A stretch of 64,000 nt of DNA. Origin: Lachnospiraceae bacterium (GTDB lineage: Bacteria; Bacillota; Clostridia; Lachnospirales; Lachnospiraceae). Shown piece after piece: positions 1-59,001 of this stretch. The position numbers and the translations under genes were made by a program. Each line of letters opens with the position of its first letter. Within the stretch, counting starts at the first letter, position 1. The notes below the pieces were generated by a model. It saw only the letters and a program-made list of their open reading frames with translations. It was not told the origin of the DNA and made no database searches. Location of the stretch: positions 1-64,000 of the forward strand of contig FUZG01000006.1 in the NCBI GenBank assembly GCA_900168235.1, in the 5' to 3' direction.

Positions 1-88
1 TGTTAGCCATAAGATTTCGCCCATCACCGAAGGTGATTTAATTAGCGAAATCTGTTACTGGAGTGAGCTGCAAGCGAATGACAGTGAC
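1..88 (+). repeat. Dispersed structured repeat, family B, left end cut by window
   Basis: This stretch aligns with the reverse complement of the MITE-like element at 58357-58502. It keeps the hairpin arms 13-20/45-52 and 23-28/32-37, but with paired base changes. The right end, TGACAGTGAC at 79-88, is a degenerate form of the terminal repeat TGAACAGTAAC seen in the other copy. The left end lies outside the window, so a target duplication cannot be checked. It codes for nothing recognisable. Confidence 0.8.
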
Positions 89-3860: not shown

Positions 3861-4894
3861 AACTCATGAAAACGCAGGACGCAGTGGGACAGATGCTCTG
3901 TCACGATATCACGCAGATAATACGTGGATCAAAGAAAGGTCCTGTTTTTAGAAAAGGACATATCATCAGGGAAGAGGATGTGCCGGTACTGCTGTCGGTT
4001 GGAAAGGACCATGTTTATATCTGGGAAGTGAACGAGAACATGATGCATGAAAATGATGCAGCGCTGGTTCTCTATGATCTCTGCAAAGGTGAAAACTTGA
4101 GCAGAACGGATGACATTAAAGAAGGAAAAATCGAGCTAGTTGCGGAGTGCGACGGTTTCATAAAGATAGATAAGGAAAGGCTTTATAAAGTAAATTCCTA
4201 TGGTCAGATGATGATAGCCACAGTGCATAATAACTATCCTGCCAAAAAAGGACAGCATGTGGCGGGGATGAGGATCATACCTCTCATCATCGAAAAAGAA
4301 AAGATGGAAGACATAAGAGCACAGGTCGGAAACGAACCGATAATGAAGCTCATTCCATATAAAAAGAAAAAGGTCGGAATAGTGACCACAGGTAATGAAG
4401 TTTTTTATAAAAGAATAGAGGATACCTTCACTCCTGTCGTAAAGGCAAAAATCGAAGAGTATGGCGGAGAGGTCATTGCTCATGAGATAAGTTCTGATGA
4501 TCCTGAAATGGAGATCGGGTGCATAAAGAAGGTATTGGATGCGGGAGCGGAAGTTGTTTTGTGCACAGGAGGAATGAGTGTAGATCCTGATGATAAGACA
4601 CCATACGCGATAGGTCAGGTAGCAGACAGGATAGTGACATATGGTTCACCGGTACTGCCCGGAGCAATGTTCATGCTGGCGTATAAGGGGCAGAATGATG
4701 AGATACCTATAATGGGACTTCCGGGATGCGTGATGTTTGCGGGAAGAACTGTGTTCGATCTTATACTTCCAAGGATTTTTACAGATGAAGTCGTTACAAA
4801 AGAAGATATAGACAGGATGGGAATGGGAGGATTTTGTATGCATTGTCAGAACTGTAATTATCCAAACTGTGCATTGGGAGTATCCGGAGCTTAA
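3857..4894 (+). CDS. MoeA-related molybdopterin-binding protein with Cys-rich tail
   Basis: 345 residues. The centre and C-terminal half carry the MoCF_biosynth fold: KKVGIVTTGNEVF, VLCTGGMSVDPDD and PIMGLPGCVMF, which match the molybdopterin-binding motifs of MoeA/MogA. The N-terminal half is shorter than in classical MoeA (about 400 residues) and resembles the clostridial molybdopterin-binding proteins found beside xdhC. The C-terminus ends in a Cys cluster, CMHCQNCNYPNC, which may bind iron-sulphur or another metal; this is not part of textbook MoeA. Probable job: molybdenum insertion or handling of the cofactor for a hydroxylase. Coupled to the MocA-ModE gene by an ATGA overlap. Confidence 0.85.
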   Translation: MKLMKTQDAVGQMLCHDITQIIRGSKKGPVFRKGHIIREEDVPVLLSVGKDHVYIWEVNENMMHENDAALVLYDLCKGENLSRTDDIKEGKIELVAECDGFIKIDKERLYKVNSYGQMMIATVHNNYPAKKGQHVAGMRIIPLIIEKEKMEDIRAQVGNEPIMKLIPYKKKKVGIVTTGNEVFYKRIEDTFTPVVKAKIEEYGGEVIAHEISSDDPEMEIGCIKKVLDAGAEVVLCTGGMSVDPDDKTPYAIGQVADRIVTYGSPVLPGAMFMLAYKGQNDEIPIMGLPGCVMFAGRTVFDLILPRIFTDEVVTKEDIDRMGMGGFCMHCQNCNYPNCALGVSGA

Positions 4895-4928
4895 ACTATT
4901 CAGTTAAAAACGGGAGGCATATAAGATC

Positions 4929-5963
4929 ATGGGATTTTACGAGGAGATAAAAAAACTAAGTAAGTACAGCAGTAATTACGCTCTGACAGTGCTTGAAGGA
5001 GATTTTGCAGGAGAAAAGGCGCTTATTTCGGATAGCAGGCTTATCTGGAGCTCTAAGGAAAACGGTTTTCTTGAAAAAAACATAACGGATGTTTTATCTA
5101 AGATCGACAGCGGAGTCGTGGATATTTCAGGGACTGATGTTTATGTGGAAGAGCTGGGACACGAGAAAAAACTGGTGGTCTGCGGAGCGGGTCATGTGTC
5201 TGCACCTATCATAAAGATCGGTAAACTGACGGGATTTAAGGTTATCTGCGTTGAAGATAGAGATTCTTTTGCCGATGATGCGAGAAATGCAGGAGCGGAT
5301 GAGGTTTTATGTGATGATTTTGGAAAAGCGCTGGACAGTATCCCGGGAGACAGTGATACATTTTTTGCTATCGTGACCAGAGGACATACCTGGGATATTG
5401 ATTGTCTAAGAAGCATTTTTAAGAAGGAGTATGCGTATATCGGTCTTATGGGCTCGCCCCGCAGAACCGGCATGGTAAAAGAAAGGCTTAGAGCTGAAGG
5501 TATTTCAGAAGAGCTCCTTAATACCATTCACACGCCGATAGGTCTCGGAATAGGTGCGGAGACTCCGGAAGAGATAGCTGTTGCTGTAATGGCAGAGATC
5601 ATAGAAGTTAAAAACCGTATGAAGAGAAATTTTGGGTATCCAAAAGAAATCCTCGGACCGATCCTTGCAGAGTATCAGGGGGACGGCGACGGTAGAAAGA
5701 TACTCGCGACTATAGTGAGGAAGAATGGCTCTGCGCCTCGTCAGACGGGAACCAAAATGCTTATCATGCCGGATAAGACCTGCATCGGAACAATAGGCGG
5801 CGGAAGTGCAGAAGCGGAAGTCATGAGTAAAGGCGCGGAGCTTCTGATGGAGCCAGGTGAAAGAACGGTACTCCATCATGTGGATCTGACAAAGACAGAA
5901 AATACTGTTAATGGTATGGTCTGCGGCGGAAATTTTGATGTCCTTATGGAGACGATCTTATGA
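4929..5963 (+). CDS. XdhC/CoxI-family molybdenum hydroxylase maturation factor
   Basis: 344 residues. The XdhC Rossmann domain comes first (KKLVVCGAGHVSAPIIKIGKLTGFKV, then VTRGHTWD and YIGLMGSPRR), followed by an XdhC_CoxI-type domain at the C-terminus (ILATIVRKNGSAPRQTG, IGTIGGGSAEAEV, VCGGNFDVLME). This is the reverse of the order in single-domain XdhC proteins, but common in clostridia. XdhC proteins bind the cofactor and promote its sulfuration and insertion into xanthine-dehydrogenase-type enzymes. Its presence with MocA points to a molybdenum hydroxylase encoded elsewhere. ATG at 4929 follows GGGAGG by a slightly long spacing. The stop overlaps moaA by 4 bases. Confidence 0.9.
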   Translation: MGFYEEIKKLSKYSSNYALTVLEGDFAGEKALISDSRLIWSSKENGFLEKNITDVLSKIDSGVVDISGTDVYVEELGHEKKLVVCGAGHVSAPIIKIGKLTGFKVICVEDRDSFADDARNAGADEVLCDDFGKALDSIPGDSDTFFAIVTRGHTWDIDCLRSIFKKEYAYIGLMGSPRRTGMVKERLRAEGISEELLNTIHTPIGLGIGAETPEEIAVAVMAEIIEVKNRMKRNFGYPKEILGPILAEYQGDGDGRKILATIVRKNGSAPRQTGTKMLIMPDKTCIGTIGGGSAEAEVMSKGAELLMEPGERTVLHHVDLTKTENTVNGMVCGGNFDVLMETIL

Positions 5964-6961
5964 TAGACAGATTTGGGCGAAAAATTGAATACATGCGGAT
6001 CTCCATTACAGACAGATGTAATCTGAGATGCAGATACTGCATGCCTGCCGGAATTAAAACAGAAAAGCTTCCTATGGACAAAATTTTGACATACGAGGAG
6101 ATTGTCGAAGTAGTAAGAGCTGCGGTGGACTGTGGGATAACCAGATTTAAGATAACTGGCGGAGAGCCTCTTGCGAGGAAGGGATGTCCGGAGCTTATCA
6201 GGATGATAAAGAAGATACCGGGAGTACAGCAGGTCACAATGACAACAAACGGCGTACTTCTTGAAAAGTTTCTGCCGGAGCTTATGGATGCAGGGCTTGA
6301 TGCGGTAAATATCAGTCTTGATACATTGAATCCGCAAACTTTTAAGGTTATTACAGGGTATGACTATTTTGAGAATGTGATCCGCGGGATAAACAGTGCA
6401 GTGGATGCAGGGCTTCCTGTAAAGATAAATTCGGTGCTTCAAAAGGGCGTGAATGATAATGAGTGGGAAGAGCTCATAAATATTGCAAAGGATAAAAAAG
6501 CAGATGTGCGTTTTATCGAAATGATGCCTATAGGCTGCGGAAGAGACTATGAAGAAGTGAGCAATGAAAAGGTTTTCCAAAGAATCAGGGACAAGTATCC
6601 TGCGGTCATCGAAGATATATCGATACATGGCAACGGCCCTGCGAGATATGTGAAAATACCGGGCTTTATGGGCTCTATAGGGTTTATAAGTGCCATTCAC
6701 GGCAAATTCTGCGGTGAGTGCAACAGGATAAGGCTCACAGCCGCAGGAAGGATAAAACCCTGCCTCTGCTATGGGAATACGTATGATGTCTTTTCAGTTT
6801 TCAGAGGAAATGAAACATCTGATATTTATTCGGAAAAGTCGAGGCATGAGATGCTGAAAAGCGTCATCAGAAAAGCGGTAAACAATAAACCTGCACAGCA
6901 TTGTTTTGAAAAGCTGTCGGAAATAACGGAGAGCCGGGAAATGGTTAAGATTGGCGGATGA
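5960..6961 (+). CDS. moaA: GTP 3',8-cyclase MoaA
   Basis: 333 residues, the normal length. Radical SAM motif CNLRCRYC lies at residues 20-27, followed by ITGGEPL. The second cluster motif FCGECNRIRLTAAGRIKPC lies in the C-terminal part and binds the [4Fe-4S] that holds GTP. The protein ends in Gly-Gly, the conserved MoaA tail that reaches into the active site. It catalyses the first step of molybdopterin synthesis together with MoaC (10708-11205). ATG overlaps the xdhC stop (ATGA), and its own stop overlaps the next gene in the same way. Confidence 0.97.
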   Translation: MIDRFGRKIEYMRISITDRCNLRCRYCMPAGIKTEKLPMDKILTYEEIVEVVRAAVDCGITRFKITGGEPLARKGCPELIRMIKKIPGVQQVTMTTNGVLLEKFLPELMDAGLDAVNISLDTLNPQTFKVITGYDYFENVIRGINSAVDAGLPVKINSVLQKGVNDNEWEELINIAKDKKADVRFIEMMPIGCGRDYEEVSNEKVFQRIRDKYPAVIEDISIHGNGPARYVKIPGFMGSIGFISAIHGKFCGECNRIRLTAAGRIKPCLCYGNTYDVFSVFRGNETSDIYSEKSRHEMLKSVIRKAVNNKPAQHCFEKLSEITESREMVKIGG

Positions 6962-7887
6962 GCATGGGAAAGATCATAGCGGTTTGTATAAGTGAAAAAA
7001 GAGGAACTCAGAAAAAGCAGGTAGAAAGTATAGAGCTGAAACCGGAACACGGAATAGTCGGCGACGCTCATGCGGGAAACTGGCATAGACAGGTGAGTCT
7101 CCTTTCATTTGAGAAGATCGATGAATTTAGAAAGCGCGGAGCTGATATAGATTTCGGAGCGTTCGGAGAAAACATAGTCTGCGAAGGTTTTGATCTGAGA
7201 ACACTTCCTGTAGGAACGAGATTTCAGATAGGAGATGCACTTCTGGAACTTACCCAGATCGGAAAGGCGTGCCACTCGCACTGTGAGATCTACAAGACCA
7301 TGGGTGACTGCATAATGCCGAGAGAGGGCGTTTTTACGATCGTCTTGAAAGGTGGTACAGTGAAGCCCGGAGATGAGATCGAAATGATCCCGCCTTCAGA
7401 CGACCGTCCTTTTACAGCAGCAGTGATAACGCTTTCTGACAGAGCATCAAAGGGTATATATGAGGATAAATCGGGACCCGTGATCAGGGAAATGCTGGAA
7501 GAGGACGGCTATCAGGTGATAGAGCAGATGGTGCTCCCTGACGGAAGAAATCGTCTGGAAACAGAGCTTATGAGGCTTTCTGACCAGAGACAGGTAAACG
7601 TGATATTTACTACAGGCGGGACCGGATTCAGTGAGCGGGATCTGACGCCTGAGGCAACGAAGGCAGTGTGTGACAGGGAAGTGCCGGGAATCGGAGAAGC
7701 GCTGAGAAATTACAGCATGCAGTTTACTCCAAATGCCATGCTTTCCAGACAGACAGCAGGAATCCGAAAGAGGACCCTTATCGTTAATCTTCCGGGAAGT
7801 CCAAAGGCATGCAGCGAGGATCTGGAGTTTCTGCTGGGACCGCTAAAGCACGGTGTTGGGATATTGCGGGGAACAGTATCGGAATGA
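6958..7887 (+). CDS. MOSC domain fused to MogA/MoaB-type molybdopterin adenylyltransferase
   Basis: 309 residues. Residues 1-140 are a MOSC domain (GIVGDAHAGNWHRQVSLLS, FGENIV, and the conserved Cys in IGKACHSHCEIY), a module proposed to bind sulfur or cofactor as in YiiM/MOSC proteins. Residues about 148-309 are MogA/MoaB: AVITLSDRASKGIYEDKSGP, FTTGGTGFSERDLTPEAT and LIVNLPGSPKAC are the molybdopterin-binding motifs. MogA adenylates molybdopterin before molybdenum insertion. The fusion may hand the cofactor from adenylation to a sulfur-carrying step; that part is inference. ATG at 6958 overlaps the moaA stop; a second ATG at 6964 is possible. Confidence 0.92.
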   Translation: MSMGKIIAVCISEKRGTQKKQVESIELKPEHGIVGDAHAGNWHRQVSLLSFEKIDEFRKRGADIDFGAFGENIVCEGFDLRTLPVGTRFQIGDALLELTQIGKACHSHCEIYKTMGDCIMPREGVFTIVLKGGTVKPGDEIEMIPPSDDRPFTAAVITLSDRASKGIYEDKSGPVIREMLEEDGYQVIEQMVLPDGRNRLETELMRLSDQRQVNVIFTTGGTGFSERDLTPEATKAVCDREVPGIGEALRNYSMQFTPNAMLSRQTAGIRKRTLIVNLPGSPKACSEDLEFLLGPLKHGVGILRGTVSE

Positions 7888-7900
7888 GAGGTGAGTTGTC

Positions 7901-8869
7901 ATGAAAAAAATTGCGAAGGTTGTAACGGCATTGATCACAGCGTCTGCACTAGTTATGAGTCTCACCGCGTGCGGAGCATCTGATAAAGTGTCTGCGGCAG
8001 GAACTTCAAGCGGAGAGGGGGCTGACACGGCATCATCTGCGGGAATAGTGGAAGATACAGCATTTTCTACTGAAGTGATGCAGGATGAGACAGAAATGAC
8101 AGAGAATGATCCGACTGAGATACAGGTATTTATCGCAGCGTCTCTTAATAATGTCATGCAGGAAGTTGCCGCGAAATATAATGAGAAAAATCCTGATGTG
8201 AAGATTGTATTTAATGCAGATTCTTCGGGAACGCTGCTTGCTCAGATAGAGGAAGGTTATGCATGTGATGTGTTTTTCTCAGCTGCGCAGAAGCAGATGA
8301 ATATCCTGCAGGATGATGATGGTCTCGTGGTTGATGGCACAAGGCACAATGTGGTCAACAATCAGGTCTGTGTGATAAAGAGAAGTGATACAGAGACTGC
8401 TGTAACAGGACTTTCTGATATTTCCAAGGCATCATCCATAGCTCTTGCTGACGGTTCTGTTCCGGTTGGAAAGTACACCCGTGAAGCTATGGTAAATGCA
8501 GGGATTCTTCCGGAAAATGAGGATGTTTCAAAGATTTCAACGAAAGAGGTATCGGACGCACTTGGCGGAGTTGAGATATCCGAGCAGTCGAATGTGTCAA
8601 AAGTTCTGGCAGCGGTTGTTGAAGGCTCCTGTGAAGTAGGAACAACGTATTATTCAGATACATACGGATACGAAAAAGACATTGAAATAATTGAAAAGGT
8701 TCCGTATGAGCTTACAGGAGATGTGATCTATCCTGTGGCTCAGATAAAGAACGACGAAGCAGATGATGCAGAAGTAAAGGCTGCAAGGGACTTTGTGGAT
8801 TTCATCGTGTCTGATGAAGCGAAGGAGATTTTTGATAAATATTACTTTGATACAGATGTTGAGAAGTGA
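7901..8869 (+). CDS. modA: Molybdate ABC transporter substrate-binding lipoprotein ModA
   Basis: 322 residues. Lipoprotein signal with lipobox LTACG (Cys near residue 25), then an acidic Ser/Thr-rich linker to about residue 68, then the ModA fold: VFIAASLNNVMQEVA (oxyanion-binding Ser), FNADSSGTLLAQIEEGYACDVFFSA and VEGSCEVGTTYYSDTY. It captures molybdate or tungstate outside the membrane for ModBC. The linker is longer than in Gram-negative ModA, as expected for a surface-anchored lipoprotein. It follows the MOSC-MogA gene by 13 bases. Confidence 0.93.
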   Translation: MKKIAKVVTALITASALVMSLTACGASDKVSAAGTSSGEGADTASSAGIVEDTAFSTEVMQDETEMTENDPTEIQVFIAASLNNVMQEVAAKYNEKNPDVKIVFNADSSGTLLAQIEEGYACDVFFSAAQKQMNILQDDDGLVVDGTRHNVVNNQVCVIKRSDTETAVTGLSDISKASSIALADGSVPVGKYTREAMVNAGILPENEDVSKISTKEVSDALGGVEISEQSNVSKVLAAVVEGSCEVGTTYYSDTYGYEKDIEIIEKVPYELTGDVIYPVAQIKNDEADDAEVKAARDFVDFIVSDEAKEIFDKYYFDTDVEK

Positions 8870-52385: not shown

Positions 52386-54761
52386 TCAGATCAGTCCCAG
52401 ATTACGCGCGGCAAGGACTGCGTCTGCTTTGCCATTTACGTTCAATTTTTTGTAGTTTGTCTTAGCGTGATAACGCACGGTCTCGAGCTTCATGTGCTCA
52501 CGGTCAGCAATCTGCTGGAGGGTAAGTCCTTCTGCCTGAAGCTTCAGAACAGTGATGGCGTGTTCTGAGAAATTAAGGAGACCTGTATTCTGCGGCTTTA
52601 AGTAGAGCGGGTAGTGGATAGCCATTTCCTCTGTTTCGAGATATACCCGCCTGAACCAGTCAGGGTCTATTCCCGCGGTATGAATTGCCTGCTCACGGAT
52701 GGCTTTTAACAGCGGGTAGACTGCTATTCCTTCACGGGAGATCAGACGGGTAAATTTATATGTGCATATTTTTGCCAGAGCTCCTATGAGGGTATTCTTA
52801 AAGCTCTTGCTTCCGCTCCTGTACTGCACGATGGCTCGGAGCAGACCAATCTCCATAGTGAGATAGTGGCGGTCGTATTTTTCTGCATAGTAGGACAGTT
52901 TATCAAGGAGTGAACGGGCTGAGGTCAGTTCGTTCGCGGTGAGGTAGGTGCGGATCTTTGTGAGATACCTGTACCGCTCCATTATGAAGAACTCGTGGGT
53001 TTCATCCGGCGCTTCCTTGAGCCAGCGGGTTATCGCCGCCTGATTTCCGTTATAAAGCGCTATACGGAGACGCAGGGCGCGGACATTTGGAATAAGAGCC
53101 GGTTCGCCCTGCTCACGGCACCGTGCTTCAAAGGATTCCGCGAGCTGTTCTGCGGTTTTCAGATCGCCGTCTGACAGGTGGATACGGCACATGATGCCTA
53201 TACCCGAGAAAACAGATTCCATGACACCGCCGTGCTCGGCTTCCAGTATTCCCTGATTTATAAGCGGCATTGTGAGACGGCTCGATTCGCCTTTTTCATA
53301 ATAGCTTTCTCCGAGTGAAATAGACGCGATGCCTTTTCCGTATCTTCCAAGTATTTCCTGAAGGAGATAACCGGAATTTTTGAAGATCTCTGTATCGCTT
53401 TTACTCCATTCACAGAAGTCCTTACCGGAGTTCATGACTGAAGGCATATTACTGGTGATAGAAAATTCGGGCAGCCGGATTCCCTGATCTACCATGTAGG
53501 ATGGGATCTTTCCGAGGATTCCGGCGGTGCTCGCAGAACCCCTGTGAGGGAGTGCTATATCGAGATAGAGGAGTCTTCCGATGGCTTCTCTTTTTCTGAT
53601 GCCGGAGGAGGTTTCTGCATAGCTTTGGAGCTGTCCGTACCAGTACTCACTGTTTTCTGTTTCCATGAGGAGGGAGTACATCATACTCATACCTGACATC
53701 ATTATGGGATCACCTATGATCTCGGTTTTTGGGAGTTTCAGATAGTATTTTCGGAGATCATAGTAGTAGCTGTTGCTGGGATTGCGCCTGGAATTTCGCA
53801 CGAGGAGTTCGTGGATACGGCCGATCTTTCCGCTTTTTTCATATAAACGGAGTGCGCGGGGGATATCATCATGAAGCTCATAATATAATCCGGCGTTATA
53901 GGCGTAGTCGTTCATGTTCAGAGTTCCGAAAAATTCGTCAGCTTTTTTACGGAGAAAATCAAGTACGATGGGACGGATACGGTAGTATTCGTCGTCGTGA
54001 TAGATAAAGTTGCCTGTTTCAAAGGCTTCGTTAATGATCTGTGAAACGTAGGGGTTTCCGGTTACAAATTCGGCAAGTTCTGCATTAAATTCATCAACTA
54101 CGCTCATCTGCATCATGAAGTCGAGGAGTGAGCGGGGCCAGTCGGGCATGATCACGTATTCGAGATAACGGTCATAGACTTTTCGTACAGTCTGATAATT
54201 TTTTTCTGTGATTCGTCCACCTTCGGGGAGCTGATGCATTATTCCCCGCAGGAAGTAGACATTGCCGTTTGTGACAGCGGTTATCTTATGGAGCATTTCT
54301 TCGGATGCAGTGATGTGGGAGAGGGCAAGGTACTGACGTGTCTTAGCTGTGTCAAACTGCAGAAGCTCTTCATCGATCATGCTGAAGGAACGGTCCATGT
54401 AGATACGTCCGAACCAGTTCAGGTCACGGCTTCTGGATATGAGGATGAGCCATACGTCTTTACGCATGGCGAGGTCGAGAACACGCTCCTGATTTTTGGG
54501 AGCGAACATTAACTGCAGATCGTCTATCACGACGCTCATGCGGCGTTTACCCTCGTTTGATGAGGGGATGACGGAGAGGTCGGGTTCTCCTGATCTGCAG
54601 GAAAAATACATATATTTTCTGGATGCAAAAAATTGCTTTATGAGTTCCGTTTTTCCGAAGCCTGCAAAACCGCTTATAAAAACCGGAGTTCCCATGGTGC
54701 CGGCTTTTTTCAGTATCTGAAATGCATCTTCCGGACAAATGTAATTTGATGATCTTGCCAT
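52386..54761 (-). CDS. Large ATP-binding LuxR-family regulator (MalT/LAL type)
   Basis: 791 residues. The N-terminal STAND ATPase has Walker A GFAGFGKTE and Walker B VVIDDLQLM. The centre is a helical array resembling MalT TPR-like repeats. The C-terminal LuxR helix-turn-helix (last 60 residues) has LKLQAEGLTLQQIADREHMKLETVRYHAKTNYKKLNVNGK. Such proteins activate transcription when they bind an inducer and ATP. It is divergent from the ACP/ligase/condensation operon and separated from it by 228 bases containing a palindrome, so it is the likely activator. ATG 54761 is chosen because GGAGGG is six bases upstream. Confidence 0.92.
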   Translation of the reverse strand: MARSSNYICPEDAFQILKKAGTMGTPVFISGFAGFGKTELIKQFFASRKYMYFSCRSGEPDLSVIPSSNEGKRRMSVVIDDLQLMFAPKNQERVLDLAMRKDVWLILISRSRDLNWFGRIYMDRSFSMIDEELLQFDTAKTRQYLALSHITASEEMLHKITAVTNGNVYFLRGIMHQLPEGGRITEKNYQTVRKVYDRYLEYVIMPDWPRSLLDFMMQMSVVDEFNAELAEFVTGNPYVSQIINEAFETGNFIYHDDEYYRIRPIVLDFLRKKADEFFGTLNMNDYAYNAGLYYELHDDIPRALRLYEKSGKIGRIHELLVRNSRRNPSNSYYYDLRKYYLKLPKTEIIGDPIMMSGMSMMYSLLMETENSEYWYGQLQSYAETSSGIRKREAIGRLLYLDIALPHRGSASTAGILGKIPSYMVDQGIRLPEFSITSNMPSVMNSGKDFCEWSKSDTEIFKNSGYLLQEILGRYGKGIASISLGESYYEKGESSRLTMPLINQGILEAEHGGVMESVFSGIGIMCRIHLSDGDLKTAEQLAESFEARCREQGEPALIPNVRALRLRIALYNGNQAAITRWLKEAPDETHEFFIMERYRYLTKIRTYLTANELTSARSLLDKLSYYAEKYDRHYLTMEIGLLRAIVQYRSGSKSFKNTLIGALAKICTYKFTRLISREGIAVYPLLKAIREQAIHTAGIDPDWFRRVYLETEEMAIHYPLYLKPQNTGLLNFSEHAITVLKLQAEGLTLQQIADREHMKLETVRYHAKTNYKKLNVNGKADAVLAARNLGLI

Positions 54762-54811
54762 ACTTAACCCTCCATATCCTTTGAACCCTGACATCATCTT
54801 AGCATGTTTCA

Positions 54812-54880
54812 GGGTAGTCTGAGATAGATATTATTCAAAAAAATATTTAAAAACATGATAAAACTACCCGAGCGGGTAGT
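54812..54880. promoter_or_regulatory. Candidate LuxR operator sites in the divergent region
   Basis: A perfect 18-bp palindrome ACTACCCGAGCGGGTAGT (54863-54880), and another copy of its half GGGTAGT at 54812-54818 inside TCAG-GGTAGT-CTGA. LAL/MalT proteins bind repeated short G-rich sites; the sites are between the regulator and the ACP gene. Confidence 0.6.
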
Positions 54881-54989
54881 GTGATGTGATAGGAGAGTAT
54901 GTTAGAACATATGGCAGAAAATAAAACGTAACTGTTTTAAGCACATCAAAAACACGTCAAAGCACATATCTTTAAGGGGAGGCAATACT

Positions 54990-55241
54990 ATGGCAGACAT
55001 AAAAATGTTTGATGAGATCCGTGATATTCTTTTGAACTACGCAGAGGTAGGAGCAGAGGAGATTAATACTGAGACAGATATCATCGAGGAACTGGGACTT
55101 GATTCCTTTAGCTTTATCTCGATGCTGGGGGAGGTAGAGGAGACCTTTGATATCTCTATCTCAGAGGAAGAGATGGAAGAAGCATTCCATCTGTTCACAC
55201 CTGCTGACATCATCAAGTTTGTAGCAAAGAAAGCTGCATGA
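54990..55241 (+). CDS. Stand-alone acyl/peptidyl carrier protein
   Basis: 83 residues, acidic, four-helix carrier fold. The phosphopantetheine Ser is in ELGLDSFSFISML (D-S motif). It is not the housekeeping AcpP: the helix 2 sequence and the operon with a ligase and condensation protein mark it as a dedicated carrier. A strong GGGGAGG stands before ATG 54990. Upstream there is a long leader with a 10-codon frame (54899-54931). Confidence 0.93.
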   Translation: MADIKMFDEIRDILLNYAEVGAEEINTETDIIEELGLDSFSFISMLGEVEETFDISISEEEMEEAFHLFTPADIIKFVAKKAA

Positions 55242-55282
55242 TCATTGGATTTTAAGTAATAAATATAATGGGGGAAATTTAA

Positions 55283-56881
55283 ATGACATTACAGGAAAAG
55301 ATCGATCGCAATATCACGGATTTTCGTTCGTTTTTAAGGGAACTGGCTGATAAATACGGCGATACACCTGCAGTACGGGAGTACCATGGAAAAGAGCTGG
55401 TGGACAGAAACTATCTGGAGCTTAAGAGAGATGCTGATGCAGTGAGCAGATTTTTGCTCGCTCAGGGTGCAGAGGAACGGATGCATATCGCAGCTGTCGG
55501 TGCCACAAGCTACCAGTATATCGCAGCTTATTTTGGAACTGTTGATACTGCAAATGTCATAGTTCCCACAGAGGCGCAGCTTTCAACAGAGACCCAGTGC
55601 GAACTTTTCCATATGGCAGATGTTACGGGTCTTTTCTTTGATAAGCACTTTGAGGATGCGATCCCGGAGATCCATGAGAAGTGTCCTGATATCAAATTAT
55701 TCATCTGTCTCACTGACGGAGTAGAGTCCCATGATCTGGGCGATATCCATATCCACAGCATCAATGAGATCGAAAAGGAATATGCAGAGGGTGAAGAGAT
55801 CATTGTTCCGCTTGAGCATGATACTTTCAGCACGATCCTTTTCACATCCGGTACGACGAGCGCCAGACCAAAGGCGGTAATGCTGTGTCACGGCGGTATC
55901 ATTGACAATATTTTTTCCGGAGAGCTGGAACAGCGTGATTCGACGAATAAAGTAAAGCTTATCGCGCTTCCTATCCACCACGCCCTGAGCTTTAACACAG
56001 ATATCTGCATGGGATTCAGAAACGGTGACACGGTATTCGTAAATGATTCCATGCTTCACATCGCAAAGAATTTCAAGGTTGCAAAGCCTTATACGGCAAT
56101 ACTTGTTCCCATGATCTTTGAAAACTTCTATCACAAGATCATGAAAGCCCATGAGGTTCATCCCGAGGTTGATCTGAAGGCTATGGCACGTGATGTTTTC
56201 GGCGGAGAAGTAGAAGTTTTCTACTGCGGAGGAGCACATTTAAGAGCAGAGATCGCGGATGCGTTTGCAGAGTGGGGCATGCCGGTATTTGAAGGCTACG
56301 GCATGACAGAATGCTCACCGAGAGTCGCAGCAAATATGCCTTGGAGATACCGCAGAGATTCTATCGGAAGGGTAGTTGATAACGCTCACGTCCGAATAAA
56401 GGACACAGAGCTTCAGGTAAAGAGCCCGTCTGTAATGCTTGGTTACTACAAAGATCCTGAGGCGACAAAGGCTGCATTTACTGAAGACGGGTGGCTCAAG
56501 AGCGGTGACATCGGATATATCGATGAAGACGGATTTATCTTCCTGCAGGGACGTATAAAGAATCTCATCATCCTTAGTAACGGTGAAAACGTGAGCCCTG
56601 AGGAGATCGAGACGAAGCTGTACGACTGCACATTTATAAAGGAGTGTCTGGTATATGAAGAAAACGGTCAGATCACAGCAGAAGTATTCCCGGACGCTGA
56701 ATACGCTGAAATGCATAAGGTTACGGATGTTGAAAAAGAGATATCAGCAGCAATAAAAGCTGTAAATAAATCAATGCCGACAACAAAGTCTGTCCGCAGC
56801 GTGAAGTTCAGATATGAGCCCTTTGAGAGGACAGCTACGAACAAGATCAAGAGAACCGGACGAGGCAAAAAGGCAGCATAA
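55283..56881 (+). CDS. AMP-forming acyl/aryl ligase (adenylation enzyme)
   Basis: 532 residues. P-loop ILFTSGTTSARPKAVML (A3), YGMTECSP (A5), SGDIGYIDEDGFIFLQGR (A7/A8) and the C-terminal Lys in NKIKRTGRGKK (A10) are all visible. It activates a carboxylic acid as an acyl-AMP and passes it to a CoA or, more likely here, to the carrier protein encoded 41 bases upstream. The acid is not predictable from the sequence; size and motifs fit medium/long-chain acyl or aryl ligases. Confidence 0.92.
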   Translation: MTLQEKIDRNITDFRSFLRELADKYGDTPAVREYHGKELVDRNYLELKRDADAVSRFLLAQGAEERMHIAAVGATSYQYIAAYFGTVDTANVIVPTEAQLSTETQCELFHMADVTGLFFDKHFEDAIPEIHEKCPDIKLFICLTDGVESHDLGDIHIHSINEIEKEYAEGEEIIVPLEHDTFSTILFTSGTTSARPKAVMLCHGGIIDNIFSGELEQRDSTNKVKLIALPIHHALSFNTDICMGFRNGDTVFVNDSMLHIAKNFKVAKPYTAILVPMIFENFYHKIMKAHEVHPEVDLKAMARDVFGGEVEVFYCGGAHLRAEIADAFAEWGMPVFEGYGMTECSPRVAANMPWRYRRDSIGRVVDNAHVRIKDTELQVKSPSVMLGYYKDPEATKAAFTEDGWLKSGDIGYIDEDGFIFLQGRIKNLIILSNGENVSPEEIETKLYDCTFIKECLVYEENGQITAEVFPDAEYAEMHKVTDVEKEISAAIKAVNKSMPTTKSVRSVKFRYEPFERTATNKIKRTGRGKKAA

Positions 56882-56909
56882 AACAAGGGTAGATGGGAAA
56901 GAGGAGTAT

Positions 56910-58355
56910 ATGACAGAACGGTTGATCAACGGTGTAATGGTAAAAACCTGGCCTTTAACTGATGTTCAGGGCGGTCTTTACAAGGTATTCGCGCACTACG
57001 CAAGTATTCAGGAAATGAATCTTGGTGTGGGATTTTATTTCAAGATGGACATGAACGAGGAACTCATGCGTCAGTCCATGAGAGAAGCAATCGGATATAT
57101 GGAGGCATTAAATGTCCGTTTCGGGCAGGATGAGAATGGAGAAATGTACCAGTACATCAATCCTGAGCCCTGGAATGAGGAGATGCCTTTATGGGATCTG
57201 TCTGATCTGTCAGAGAAGGAAGCAAAGGAATATCTGACGAAGGTTACGTCAGAGCCGATCGATTACCTGCACAAAAATATGACCATCGTGAGTCTCGTGA
57301 AGTTAAGAGACGGTTTCAGCGGAGTGTATATCAATTTTAATCATATGCTTGCTGACGGCTATTCCATAAATATGTTCATGACCTATCTCGCGGTGATCTA
57401 TTTCTCACATGCAGCGGGTAAGGAGATAGACCTTCCGAGGAAGAGCGACTACATAAAAATGATCGAAAAGGAATTGGAATACAAGGGTTCTGAGCGTGAA
57501 AAAGCAGATCATGAATTTTGGAACAGCACTCTTGAGGAAGGCGAGCCGATTTATACTCATCCGACAGCAGCACCGAATAATGCGAGGGTGAGACAGCTTA
57601 GAGAAAAGGGTGAGACCAGATATTTTGAAAATACCATCAGTCCCAAGGCTTCTATCGATTCTGAGATCATTGGCGGAGAGAGAGCAGAAAAACTGGTGGA
57701 TGCCATTGCTGAAAATAAGCTTTCTGAAAATGCCCTTGCAACACTGGCATTGAGAAGCACGCTTTCCCTCTTAAATCACAGGGAAACTGATATCGCGGCA
57801 CGTGTAATCGTAAACCGCAGAGGTACGATAAACGAGCGCTATTCAGGCGGAAACAGGATGACATTCCTCACATGGAGAAGCATCATCGATGATGATATGC
57901 CGGTACGTGATGCACTGAAGGAAATGATCGACAGCCAGAAAAAGATTTTCCGTCATGCGGACTATAACTCCATGAAGAGACTTGCTGAGCGCGGTCAGTA
58001 TTTCGGAAATCCGCCTCTCGCAACATACGAATCCGTGACATTTACATATCAGCCAAATACGGTCCAGATAGATCCGAGACTTCCTGAGATGAAGGCTGTG
58101 TGGTACTCAAACAGCAGTACATCAAATATCTGCTACTTAACTCTTGAGCACATGCTCGGAAAGAAAGATTACGTATTTATCTATGAGCGTCGAGTTGAGG
58201 AAATGAGTGAAGAGGAGATGCATTTCTTTACAGAACTCATGATGGAGTGCATGGAGAGCGCAGTAGAGCATCTTGACGGAACAATAGGCGAAGTCCTCGA
58301 TGAAGTTCAGGCACGCCATCCTGAACTGTGCGAAAGCGAGATGCGGGCAGTGTAA
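56910..58355 (+). CDS. Condensation-domain (NRPS C-domain-like) acyltransferase
   Basis: 481 residues. The condensation/WES-acyltransferase fold is supported by FNHMLADGYS near residue 168: the His-x3-Asp-Gly of HHxxxDG is intact, with Asn in place of the first His, as in several stand-alone transferases. The C-terminal half has the paired-lobe motifs of the family (RVIVNRRG). It would move the acyl group from the carrier to an amine, alcohol or thiol acceptor. The frame is open upstream, but ATG 56910 has AAAGAGGAG before it, 28 bases after the ligase. A MITE is inserted exactly at its stop codon. Confidence 0.86.
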   Translation: MTERLINGVMVKTWPLTDVQGGLYKVFAHYASIQEMNLGVGFYFKMDMNEELMRQSMREAIGYMEALNVRFGQDENGEMYQYINPEPWNEEMPLWDLSDLSEKEAKEYLTKVTSEPIDYLHKNMTIVSLVKLRDGFSGVYINFNHMLADGYSINMFMTYLAVIYFSHAAGKEIDLPRKSDYIKMIEKELEYKGSEREKADHEFWNSTLEEGEPIYTHPTAAPNNARVRQLREKGETRYFENTISPKASIDSEIIGGERAEKLVDAIAENKLSENALATLALRSTLSLLNHRETDIAARVIVNRRGTINERYSGGNRMTFLTWRSIIDDDMPVRDALKEMIDSQKKIFRHADYNSMKRLAERGQYFGNPPLATYESVTFTYQPNTVQIDPRLPEMKAVWYSNSSTSNICYLTLEHMLGKKDYVFIYERRVEEMSEEEMHFFTELMMECMESAVEHLDGTIGEVLDEVQARHPELCESEMRAV

Positions 58356-58356
58356 G

Positions 58357-58502
58357 GTTACTGTTCACTCGCTTACAGCTCGCTCCAGTAACGGATTTTG
58401 CCAATTAAATCGCCTTTGGCGATGGGCAAAATCCAATGGCTCGCCTTCGTTATTGGGGCATAACTGCGCAGCGTAGTGCGCAGTTTGCCTCTGAACAGTA
58501 AC
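58357..58502 (-). mobile_element. 146-bp MITE-like element, family B, with 8-bp target duplication
   Basis: Perfect 11-bp terminal inverted repeats GTTACTGTTCA (58357-58367) and TGAACAGTAAC (58492-58502). The flanks carry the perfect direct repeat AGTGTAAG (58349-58356 and 58503-58510), which includes the TAA stop of the upstream gene. The interior folds: GATTTTGCC/GGCAAAATC (58394-58402/58425-58433), ATCGCC/GGCGAT inside it, and AACTGCGCA/TGCGCAGTT (58462-58470/58477-58485). No protein is coded. A diverged copy is at 1-88. It is a non-autonomous insertion whose transposase is not in the window. Confidence 0.88.
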
Positions 58503-58564
58503 AGTGTAAGTTCTAAAAATATTTCAGAAATTTTAATATGTTTATTTCGGATAATGCGTTAAAA

Positions 58565-58583
58565 TAGAGGTAACTAATCTCTA
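58565..58583. promoter_or_regulatory. Inverted repeat before the DtxR/MntR-type gene
   Basis: TAGAG-9-CTCTA palindrome overlapping a TAAAAT -10-like box (58560-58565), 20 bases before the ATG. It fits autoregulation by a metal-dependent repressor, but does not match the usual DtxR box closely. Confidence 0.4.
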
Positions 58584-58602
58584 CCCAACGGGAGTCTAAT
58601 TT

Positions 58603-59001
58603 ATGAGTGAAAGATCAACGCAGGCCGTACATAAACATGAATCTGAACAGGATTACCTTGAAACGATCTTAAAGATCAAAAAAGAAAAAGGAAGCTGTTA
58701 TGCAGTTGATGTATCCAGAGCACTGAATATTTCAAAGCCGTCTGTTACTATAGCTGTAAATAAACTGGTGGCTAAGGGATATATCATCCGTTCGGAAGGA
58801 AAAGAGCTGACTCTTACTGACGAAGGAGCAAAGATCGCAAAGAAGATCTACGAGCGTCATCGTTTCCTGAAGACATGGCTCATGAAGATCGGTGTTTCCG
58901 AAAAGACAGCAGAAGAGGAAGCCTGTATGCTCGAGCATGATATCAGCCAGAGCACATTTCAGAAAATGAAAAAGGCTTATAAGGAATATTATTCCGAATA
59001 A
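58603..59001 (+). CDS. DtxR/MntR-family metal-dependent repressor, short form
   Basis: 132 residues: a winged helix (about 15-75, VDVSRALNISKPSVTIAVNKLVAKGYI) and a dimerisation/metal domain with RHRFLKTWL and EEACMLEHDIS. The metal ligands are D17, E20, and the Cys, Glu and His of the C-x2-E-H motif, as in IdeR/DtxR; no SH3-like third domain. It probably senses Fe2+ or Mn2+ and represses metal uptake genes, none of which are in the window. Start ATG 58603 has GGGAG ahead of it. Confidence 0.92.
   Translation: MSERSTQAVHKHESEQDYLETILKIKKEKGSCYAVDVSRALNISKPSVTIAVNKLVAKGYIIRSEGKELTLTDEGAKIAKKIYERHRFLKTWLMKIGVSEKTAEEEACMLEHDISQSTFQKMKKAYKEYYSE

What the first reader, a model, noticed from the sequence alone, without database searches (positions are those of the whole stretch)
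58349..58510. MITE-like element inserted exactly at a stop codon, with target duplication
The element 58357-58502 has 11-bp perfect terminal inverted repeats and lies between two copies of AGTGTAAG (58349-58356, 58503-58510). The left copy contains the TAA stop of the condensation-domain gene, so insertion kept the stop and moved the downstream region. Direct repeats and perfect ends mean the insertion is recent or under constraint. It codes for nothing and so needs a transposase from elsewhere.
Basis: seen in the sequence. Interest (0 to 1): 0.78.

Follow-up and report, generated by a model that had tools for sequence, protein, structure and literature searches.

The report
Small hairpin transposon driven by IS66
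The 146-base element is a genuine miniature transposon, one of dozens of copies in this rumen bacterium and its relatives; it carries no genes and is almost certainly moved by the enzyme of a larger IS66-type jumping element found in sister species but not in this genome.

Summary
In detail: 146 bp, perfect 11-bp inverted ends, perfect 8-bp duplication, inserted 1 bp after a TAA stop. It is far beyond chance. The genome holds 43 BLAST matches; 17 of 22 near-full-length copies have different, perfect 8-bp duplications, and eight copies differ from this one by a single base (recent burst). Relatives bring the total to 75 distinct insertions with perfect duplications. Two sister species show reciprocal empty sites in the orthologous gap between the same two genes. 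The family occurs in 33 of 46 genomes of the genus. I found the likely engine: complete 2.2-2.3 kb elements with the same ends, 8-bp duplications, an accessory ORF and a divergent IS66-family transposase (PF03050), in MC2017, MA2020 and two other genomes. In one, each distinct end matches the corresponding end of a miniature relative. The window's own assembly has none, not even at contig ends. The body is a set of hairpins that keep pairing through compensatory changes. The stop-codon landing is not special targeting (9 near-stop of 67, 4.3 expected). Verdict: a new, well-defined family of a known kind (MITE), with an IS66 partner I did not find described before.

The parts
58349..58356 (.). 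left 8-bp target-site duplication AGTGTAAG, holding the TAA stop (58353-58355)
   Evidence: sequence; duplications of 8 bp seen at the other copies
58357..58502 (+). 146-bp miniature inverted-repeat transposable element
   Evidence: best match of covariance model R1, 165 bits
58357..58367 (+). left terminal inverted repeat GTTACTGTTCA
   Evidence: shared with complete IS66-type elements
58371..58379 (+). subterminal small hairpin GCT-TAC-AGC; sequence varies among subfamilies with the pairing kept
58393..58434 (+). central stem GGATTTTGCC / GGCAAAATCC (58393-58402 with 58425-58434)
   Evidence: covarying pairs
58409..58423 (+). inner hairpin ATCGCC-TTT-GGCGAT (58409-58414 with 58418-58423)
   Evidence: covarying pairs
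58462..58485 (+). third stem-loop AACTGCGCA / TGCGCAGTT (58462-58470 with 58477-58485)
   Evidence: covarying outer pairs
58492..58502 (-). right terminal inverted repeat (GTTACTGTTCA on the minus strand)
58503..58510 (.). right 8-bp target-site duplication AGTGTAAG
56814..58355 (+). upstream gene, condensation-domain protein (513 aa), left intact by the insertion
58603..59001 (+). downstream gene, DtxR/IdeR-type metal-dependent repressor (132 aa), pushed 154 bp away by element plus duplication
1..88 (-). second, diverged copy of the same family, cut by the start of the contig

Best explanation
The feature is a type II MITE. Its ends are recognised in trans by the transposase (TnpC, helped by a ~100-aa accessory ORF) of a divergent IS66-family element with the same terminal repeats. 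The transposase inserts the element into AT-rich, mostly intergenic DNA with an 8-bp staggered cut, giving the 8-bp duplications. In this genome the element has amplified recently from one master sequence, but the autonomous partner is no longer (or not) in the assembly, so the copies are orphans. The window copy landed 1 bp after the stop codon of the condensation gene and changed no protein. Shown: copies, duplications, reciprocal empty sites, partner elements with matching ends, absence of a partner in the assembly, covarying hairpins. Inferred: that TnpC acts on the MITE in trans, and whether it works by cut-and-paste or copy-and-paste.
For: 43 matches in the own genome and 47 by covariance model. 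8-bp duplications at different sites; 75 distinct insertions with perfect duplications including relatives. Reciprocal empty sites in the orthologous gap of two sister genomes. NCBIfam transpos_IS66 is the best model for every transposase tested. Published ISDge4 (IS66 family, ISBst12 group) has ends GTGACTACTCAGCA / GTAACTGCTCAGCA and an 8-bp duplication (PMC12898284). No partner in the own genome by PF03050, accessory ORF, TnpC, or contig-end comparison.
Against: The window element shares only 11-13 bp with the partners compared with it, so derivation from one of them is not shown. Several MITE-rich genomes (G000, G009, G034, G063) lack a detectable partner. Scores against NCBIfam's IS66 model fall below its curated cut-off (126-173 of 180 bits). 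No transposition was observed.
Confidence: 0.88

Rival explanations
1. A structured-RNA or regulatory repeat under selection, for example a 3'-UTR stabiliser or processing hairpin that spread by some other route; mobility would be secondary.
For: Very stable fold (z -7.25) and compensatory changes: 12 of 28 consensus pairs with double changes, 97% of cells paired against about 29-36% for slid partners.
Against: Perfect 8-bp duplications at unrelated sites, empty sites and near-identical recent copies show transposition. Both orientations and several gene arrangements occur. No Rfam match and no terminator-like site. Palindromic arms can also be kept alike by templated repair, without selection on RNA.
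Confidence: 0.07
2. A MITE moved by another transposase family with 8-bp duplications (for example IS6/IS26-type or the IS4-family element seen in G033).
For: IS6/IS26 ends also contain ACTGTT (recalled, a lead only); the G033 IS4-family element also makes 8-bp duplications.
Against: No PF13610 match in the own genome. The G033 IS4-family element has different ends (CAATGTCA...) and inserts into the MITE instead of sharing its ends. Every complete large element found with these ends whose transposase I tested encodes an IS66-type enzyme.
Confidence: 0.04
3. A site-specific element that targets stop codons or gene ends.
For: 9 of 67 intergenic insertions lie within 10 bp of a stop codon against 4.3 expected, P about 0.014; G063 has an independent duplication with the stop inside, GATATAAG.
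Against: 58 of 67 are elsewhere; the target shows only AT-richness. AT-rich targets and selection against disrupting genes explain a small excess.
Confidence: 0.01

Closest known systems
IS66 family, ISBst12 group (ISDge4 of Deinococcus geothermalis, PMC12898284)
   Same: 8-bp duplication; similar terminal sequence (GTAACTGCTCAGCA against GTTACTGTTCAGA); IS66 DDE transposase in the partner
   Different: The window element codes for nothing. The partners here have an extra ~100-aa ORF before TnpC, whereas the ISBst12 group is described as single-ORF.
Type II bacterial MITEs in general (review PMC10969869; Coxiella QMITE1/2, Geobacter Chunjie)
   Same: Under 500 bp, short inverted ends, duplications, AT-rich intergenic sites, stable hairpins, similarity to the IS confined to the ends
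   Different: Different ends and partner family (IS66 is not mentioned in that review); a nearly constant 140-147 bp length with compensatory changes, plus 201- and 251-bp versions with extra hairpins in the loops
Correia/NEMIS elements of Neisseria
   Same: About 100-155 bp, transcripts fold into long stems
   Different: Correia has ~24-bp ends with TA at the termini (PMC2229807); here 11-bp ends and an 8-bp duplication

Membership tests
MITE | short (<500 bp), non-coding | tested here: met
   146 bp, no gene in it
MITE | terminal inverted repeats | tested here: met
   11 bp perfect
MITE | target-site duplication of constant length at many sites | tested here: met
   8 bp; 75 distinct insertions with perfect duplications
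MITE | empty sites in relatives | tested here: met
   reciprocal empty sites G009/G014; the window's own insertion is absent from both orthologous loci, whose sequence there has diverged
MITE | an autonomous element with the same ends | tested here: met
   complete elements in G013, G028, G031, G066
MITE | mobilisation in trans demonstrated | not testable with these tools
   needs an experiment
MITE type II | similarity to the partner limited to the ends | tested here: met
   11-13 bp at the ends only for the window element; up to 25 bp for miniature relatives against the G013 element
IS66 family (partner elements) | DDE transposase of PF03050 | tested here: met
   53-74 bits against cut-off 23.1
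IS66 family (partner elements) | NCBIfam IS66 equivalog above cut-off | tested here: not met
   best model, but 126-173 bits against 180: a divergent branch
IS66 family (partner elements) | 8-bp duplication | tested here: met
   GTTCATTT, GAGCTATG, CCTTTGCT, AGAGGATT
IS66 family, ISBst12 group (partner elements) | single ORF | tested here: not met
   a ~100-aa accessory ORF precedes TnpC, so I do not file the partners in this group
IS6/IS26 family as partner | PF13610 transposase in the genome | tested here: not met
   none in the own genome
Known RNA family (Rfam 15) | covariance-model match | tested here: not met
   no match up to E=1

The most novel reading that the evidence does not exclude
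The hairpin body is itself a functional part: a structure kept by compensatory change across the genus (33 of 46 genomes carry the family), acting either as transposition DNA (single-stranded or cruciform intermediate, or internal transposase site) or as an RNA that benefits the element or host, so that the element is more than a pair of ends carried along by IS66.
Probability: 0.2. Interest if true: 0.6.

Novelty: new member of a known kind. Interest (0 to 1): 0.36.

Why it matters
It gives a cleanly defined, recently active MITE family with its likely engine, in a rumen lineage where my library searches found no described MITE, and I found no paper linking IS66 to a MITE. The constant length with covarying hairpins makes a testable question of why some MITEs keep their bodies when in theory only the ends matter.

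Tried and rejected
IS6/IS26-type partner (PF13610): none in the own genome. PF01609 transposases in MITE-rich relatives: the only ones found with MITE ends on both sides were IS4-family copies inserted inside MITEs, with other ends of their own. Searching orphan ends in the own genome for a large partner: none. Conventional IS66 copies (about 285 bits) in G014, G028, G031 and G033: no exact GTTACTGTTCA ends within reach. Contig ends of the own assembly hiding the partner: no IS66-like end at any contig end; many ends share sequence with one another instead. Rfam: nothing. Terminator or promoter role: no consensus site. G063 insertion next to a stop: independent, in a different gene. Literature: no MITE paper for Butyrivibrio; the three hits for MITE plus Lachnospiraceae were off-topic by title and were not read. 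The only paper holding all of MITE, IS66 family, non-autonomous and bacteri was a Paracoccus survey that does not describe an IS66-driven MITE in the passages read.

Full report
Observation. The sequence is as described: AGTGTAAG, a 146-bp element with perfect 11-bp inverted ends, AGTGTAAG. The stop TAA of the condensation-domain gene (56814-58355) lies inside the left duplication, and the insertion point is one base after it. The next gene (58603-59001) is a DtxR-type repressor.

Copies. The own genome (3.79 Mb, 28 contigs, 99.9% complete) has 43 BLAST matches. Eight copies are identical to each other and differ from the window copy by one base in a loop. Of 22 near-full-length copies, 17 have perfect 8-bp duplications and 3 have one mismatch, each at a different target. 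In all fetched loci there are 75 distinct insertions with perfect 8-bp duplications, mostly 143-147 bp long, with 200/201- and 251-bp versions. Targets are AT-rich with no clear motif. With a simple ORF rule, 67 of 75 are intergenic.

Relatives and empty sites. The element is found only within the genus in a sample of 61 genomes. An exact 29-base pattern hits Lachnospiraceae records (NK4A144, MC2017, MA2020, several MAGs). The covariance model finds the family in 33 of 46 genomes of the genus. The orthologous condensation gene to repressor locus exists in G009 and G014 (87-89% identical proteins). Neither has the window's insertion, but each has its own related MITE at a different position in the same gap, and each shows the clean, uninterrupted site for the other's insertion. 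A third relative, G031, has the full-size IS66-type element about 55 bp upstream of a close relative of the same repressor gene.

The engine. Following the ends led to complete elements of 2193-2314 bp with GTTAC[T/A][G/A]TTCA ends, 8-bp duplications, a ~100-aa accessory ORF and a 538-591-aa transposase matching PF03050. NCBIfam's best model is the IS66 transposase, below its cut-off. In G013 the two ends differ from each other, and each matches the corresponding end of a miniature relative (18/18 bp, and 88% over 25 bp). G033 carries a 752-bp internally deleted derivative that keeps the accessory ORF. A published IS66 element of the ISBst12 group, ISDge4, has similar ends and an 8-bp duplication (PMC12898284). 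The own genome has no such transposase, accessory ORF or end at contig termini: its copies are orphans of a recent burst.

The body. The RNA fold is far more stable than shuffles. In 26 aligned copies from many subfamilies, 12 of 28 consensus pairs have compensatory double changes; 97% of cells pair, against 29-36% when partners are slid (the extended structure gives 90%). Single-sided G-U intermediates are rarer than double changes. This would fit templated correction between palindrome arms at least as well as RNA selection; that is my inference and the sample is small. Copies are related, so double changes are fewer events than cells.

Stop codon. Nine of 67 intergenic insertions are within 10 bp of a stop against 4.3 expected (P about 0.014, crude ORF calls). 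This is a mild excess, well explained by AT-rich targets and tolerance at gene ends.

Verdict. A real, recently active MITE family with an identified likely IS66-type partner. Known kind, new family.

Noticed in passing
window 1-88; L314, L334, L339: A second, diverged MITE copy starts the contig just before tRNA-Asp and tRNA-Val (175-329). The same 88 bases are identical near the ends of contigs C10, C13 and C15, apparently carried with a larger repeated region at contig ends (possibly rRNA operons; not checked).
   Followed up: partly
L145, L147, L150, L155, L157 (G033): An IS4-family element (ends CAATGTCAGTAAGTT) has inserted independently at the same position about 15 bp inside MITE ends (duplication TTCACACN) in at least four copies, with a fifth that looks recombined; the MITE end appears to be a hot target.
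   Followed up: partly
L167 11195, L175 1306 and 5463 (G033): Short non-coding elements with the IS4-family element's ends (CAATGTCATT...), probably a second MITE family, at least one sitting inside an IS66-type MITE end.
   Followed up: no
L177, L182, L184, L185 (G033): 201- and 251-bp versions carry additional hairpins inserted in the loops of the basic element, so the element seems to grow by hairpin-in-loop additions.
   Followed up: partly
L198 4636-8590 (G028): The IS66-type element 4636-6825 lies in a larger unit 4636-8590 flanked by GCAACCCG duplications, with extra DNA and a 183-codon open frame: possibly a transposon with passenger DNA.
   Followed up: no
window gap 58356-58602 and its orthologs in G009, G014; L195 (G031): The DNA upstream of the same DtxR-type gene was hit separately by MITEs in three genomes and by the full-size element in a fourth, and both G009 and G014 share an older end remnant (GTTACAGTTCAC) there: a possible insertion hot spot.
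   Followed up: partly
L282 2231-2242 (G031); G033:C1 254957-254984; L168 3338-3690 (G033): Elements often sit end to end within a few bases of each other, suggesting insertion next to existing ends.
   Followed up: no
L199 5023-7215, L289 1334-3647 and others: The ~100-aa accessory ORF of the partner elements has no Pfam or NCBIfam family in the copies tested, but resembles the start of a larger DDE_Tnp_1 transposase in G014 (L190).
   Followed up: partly
window 52386-58355: LuxR-type regulator, acyl-carrier protein, adenylate-forming enzyme and condensation protein close together: a small uncharacterised biosynthetic cluster (names of all but the condensation gene are from reading the sequence).
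   Followed up: no
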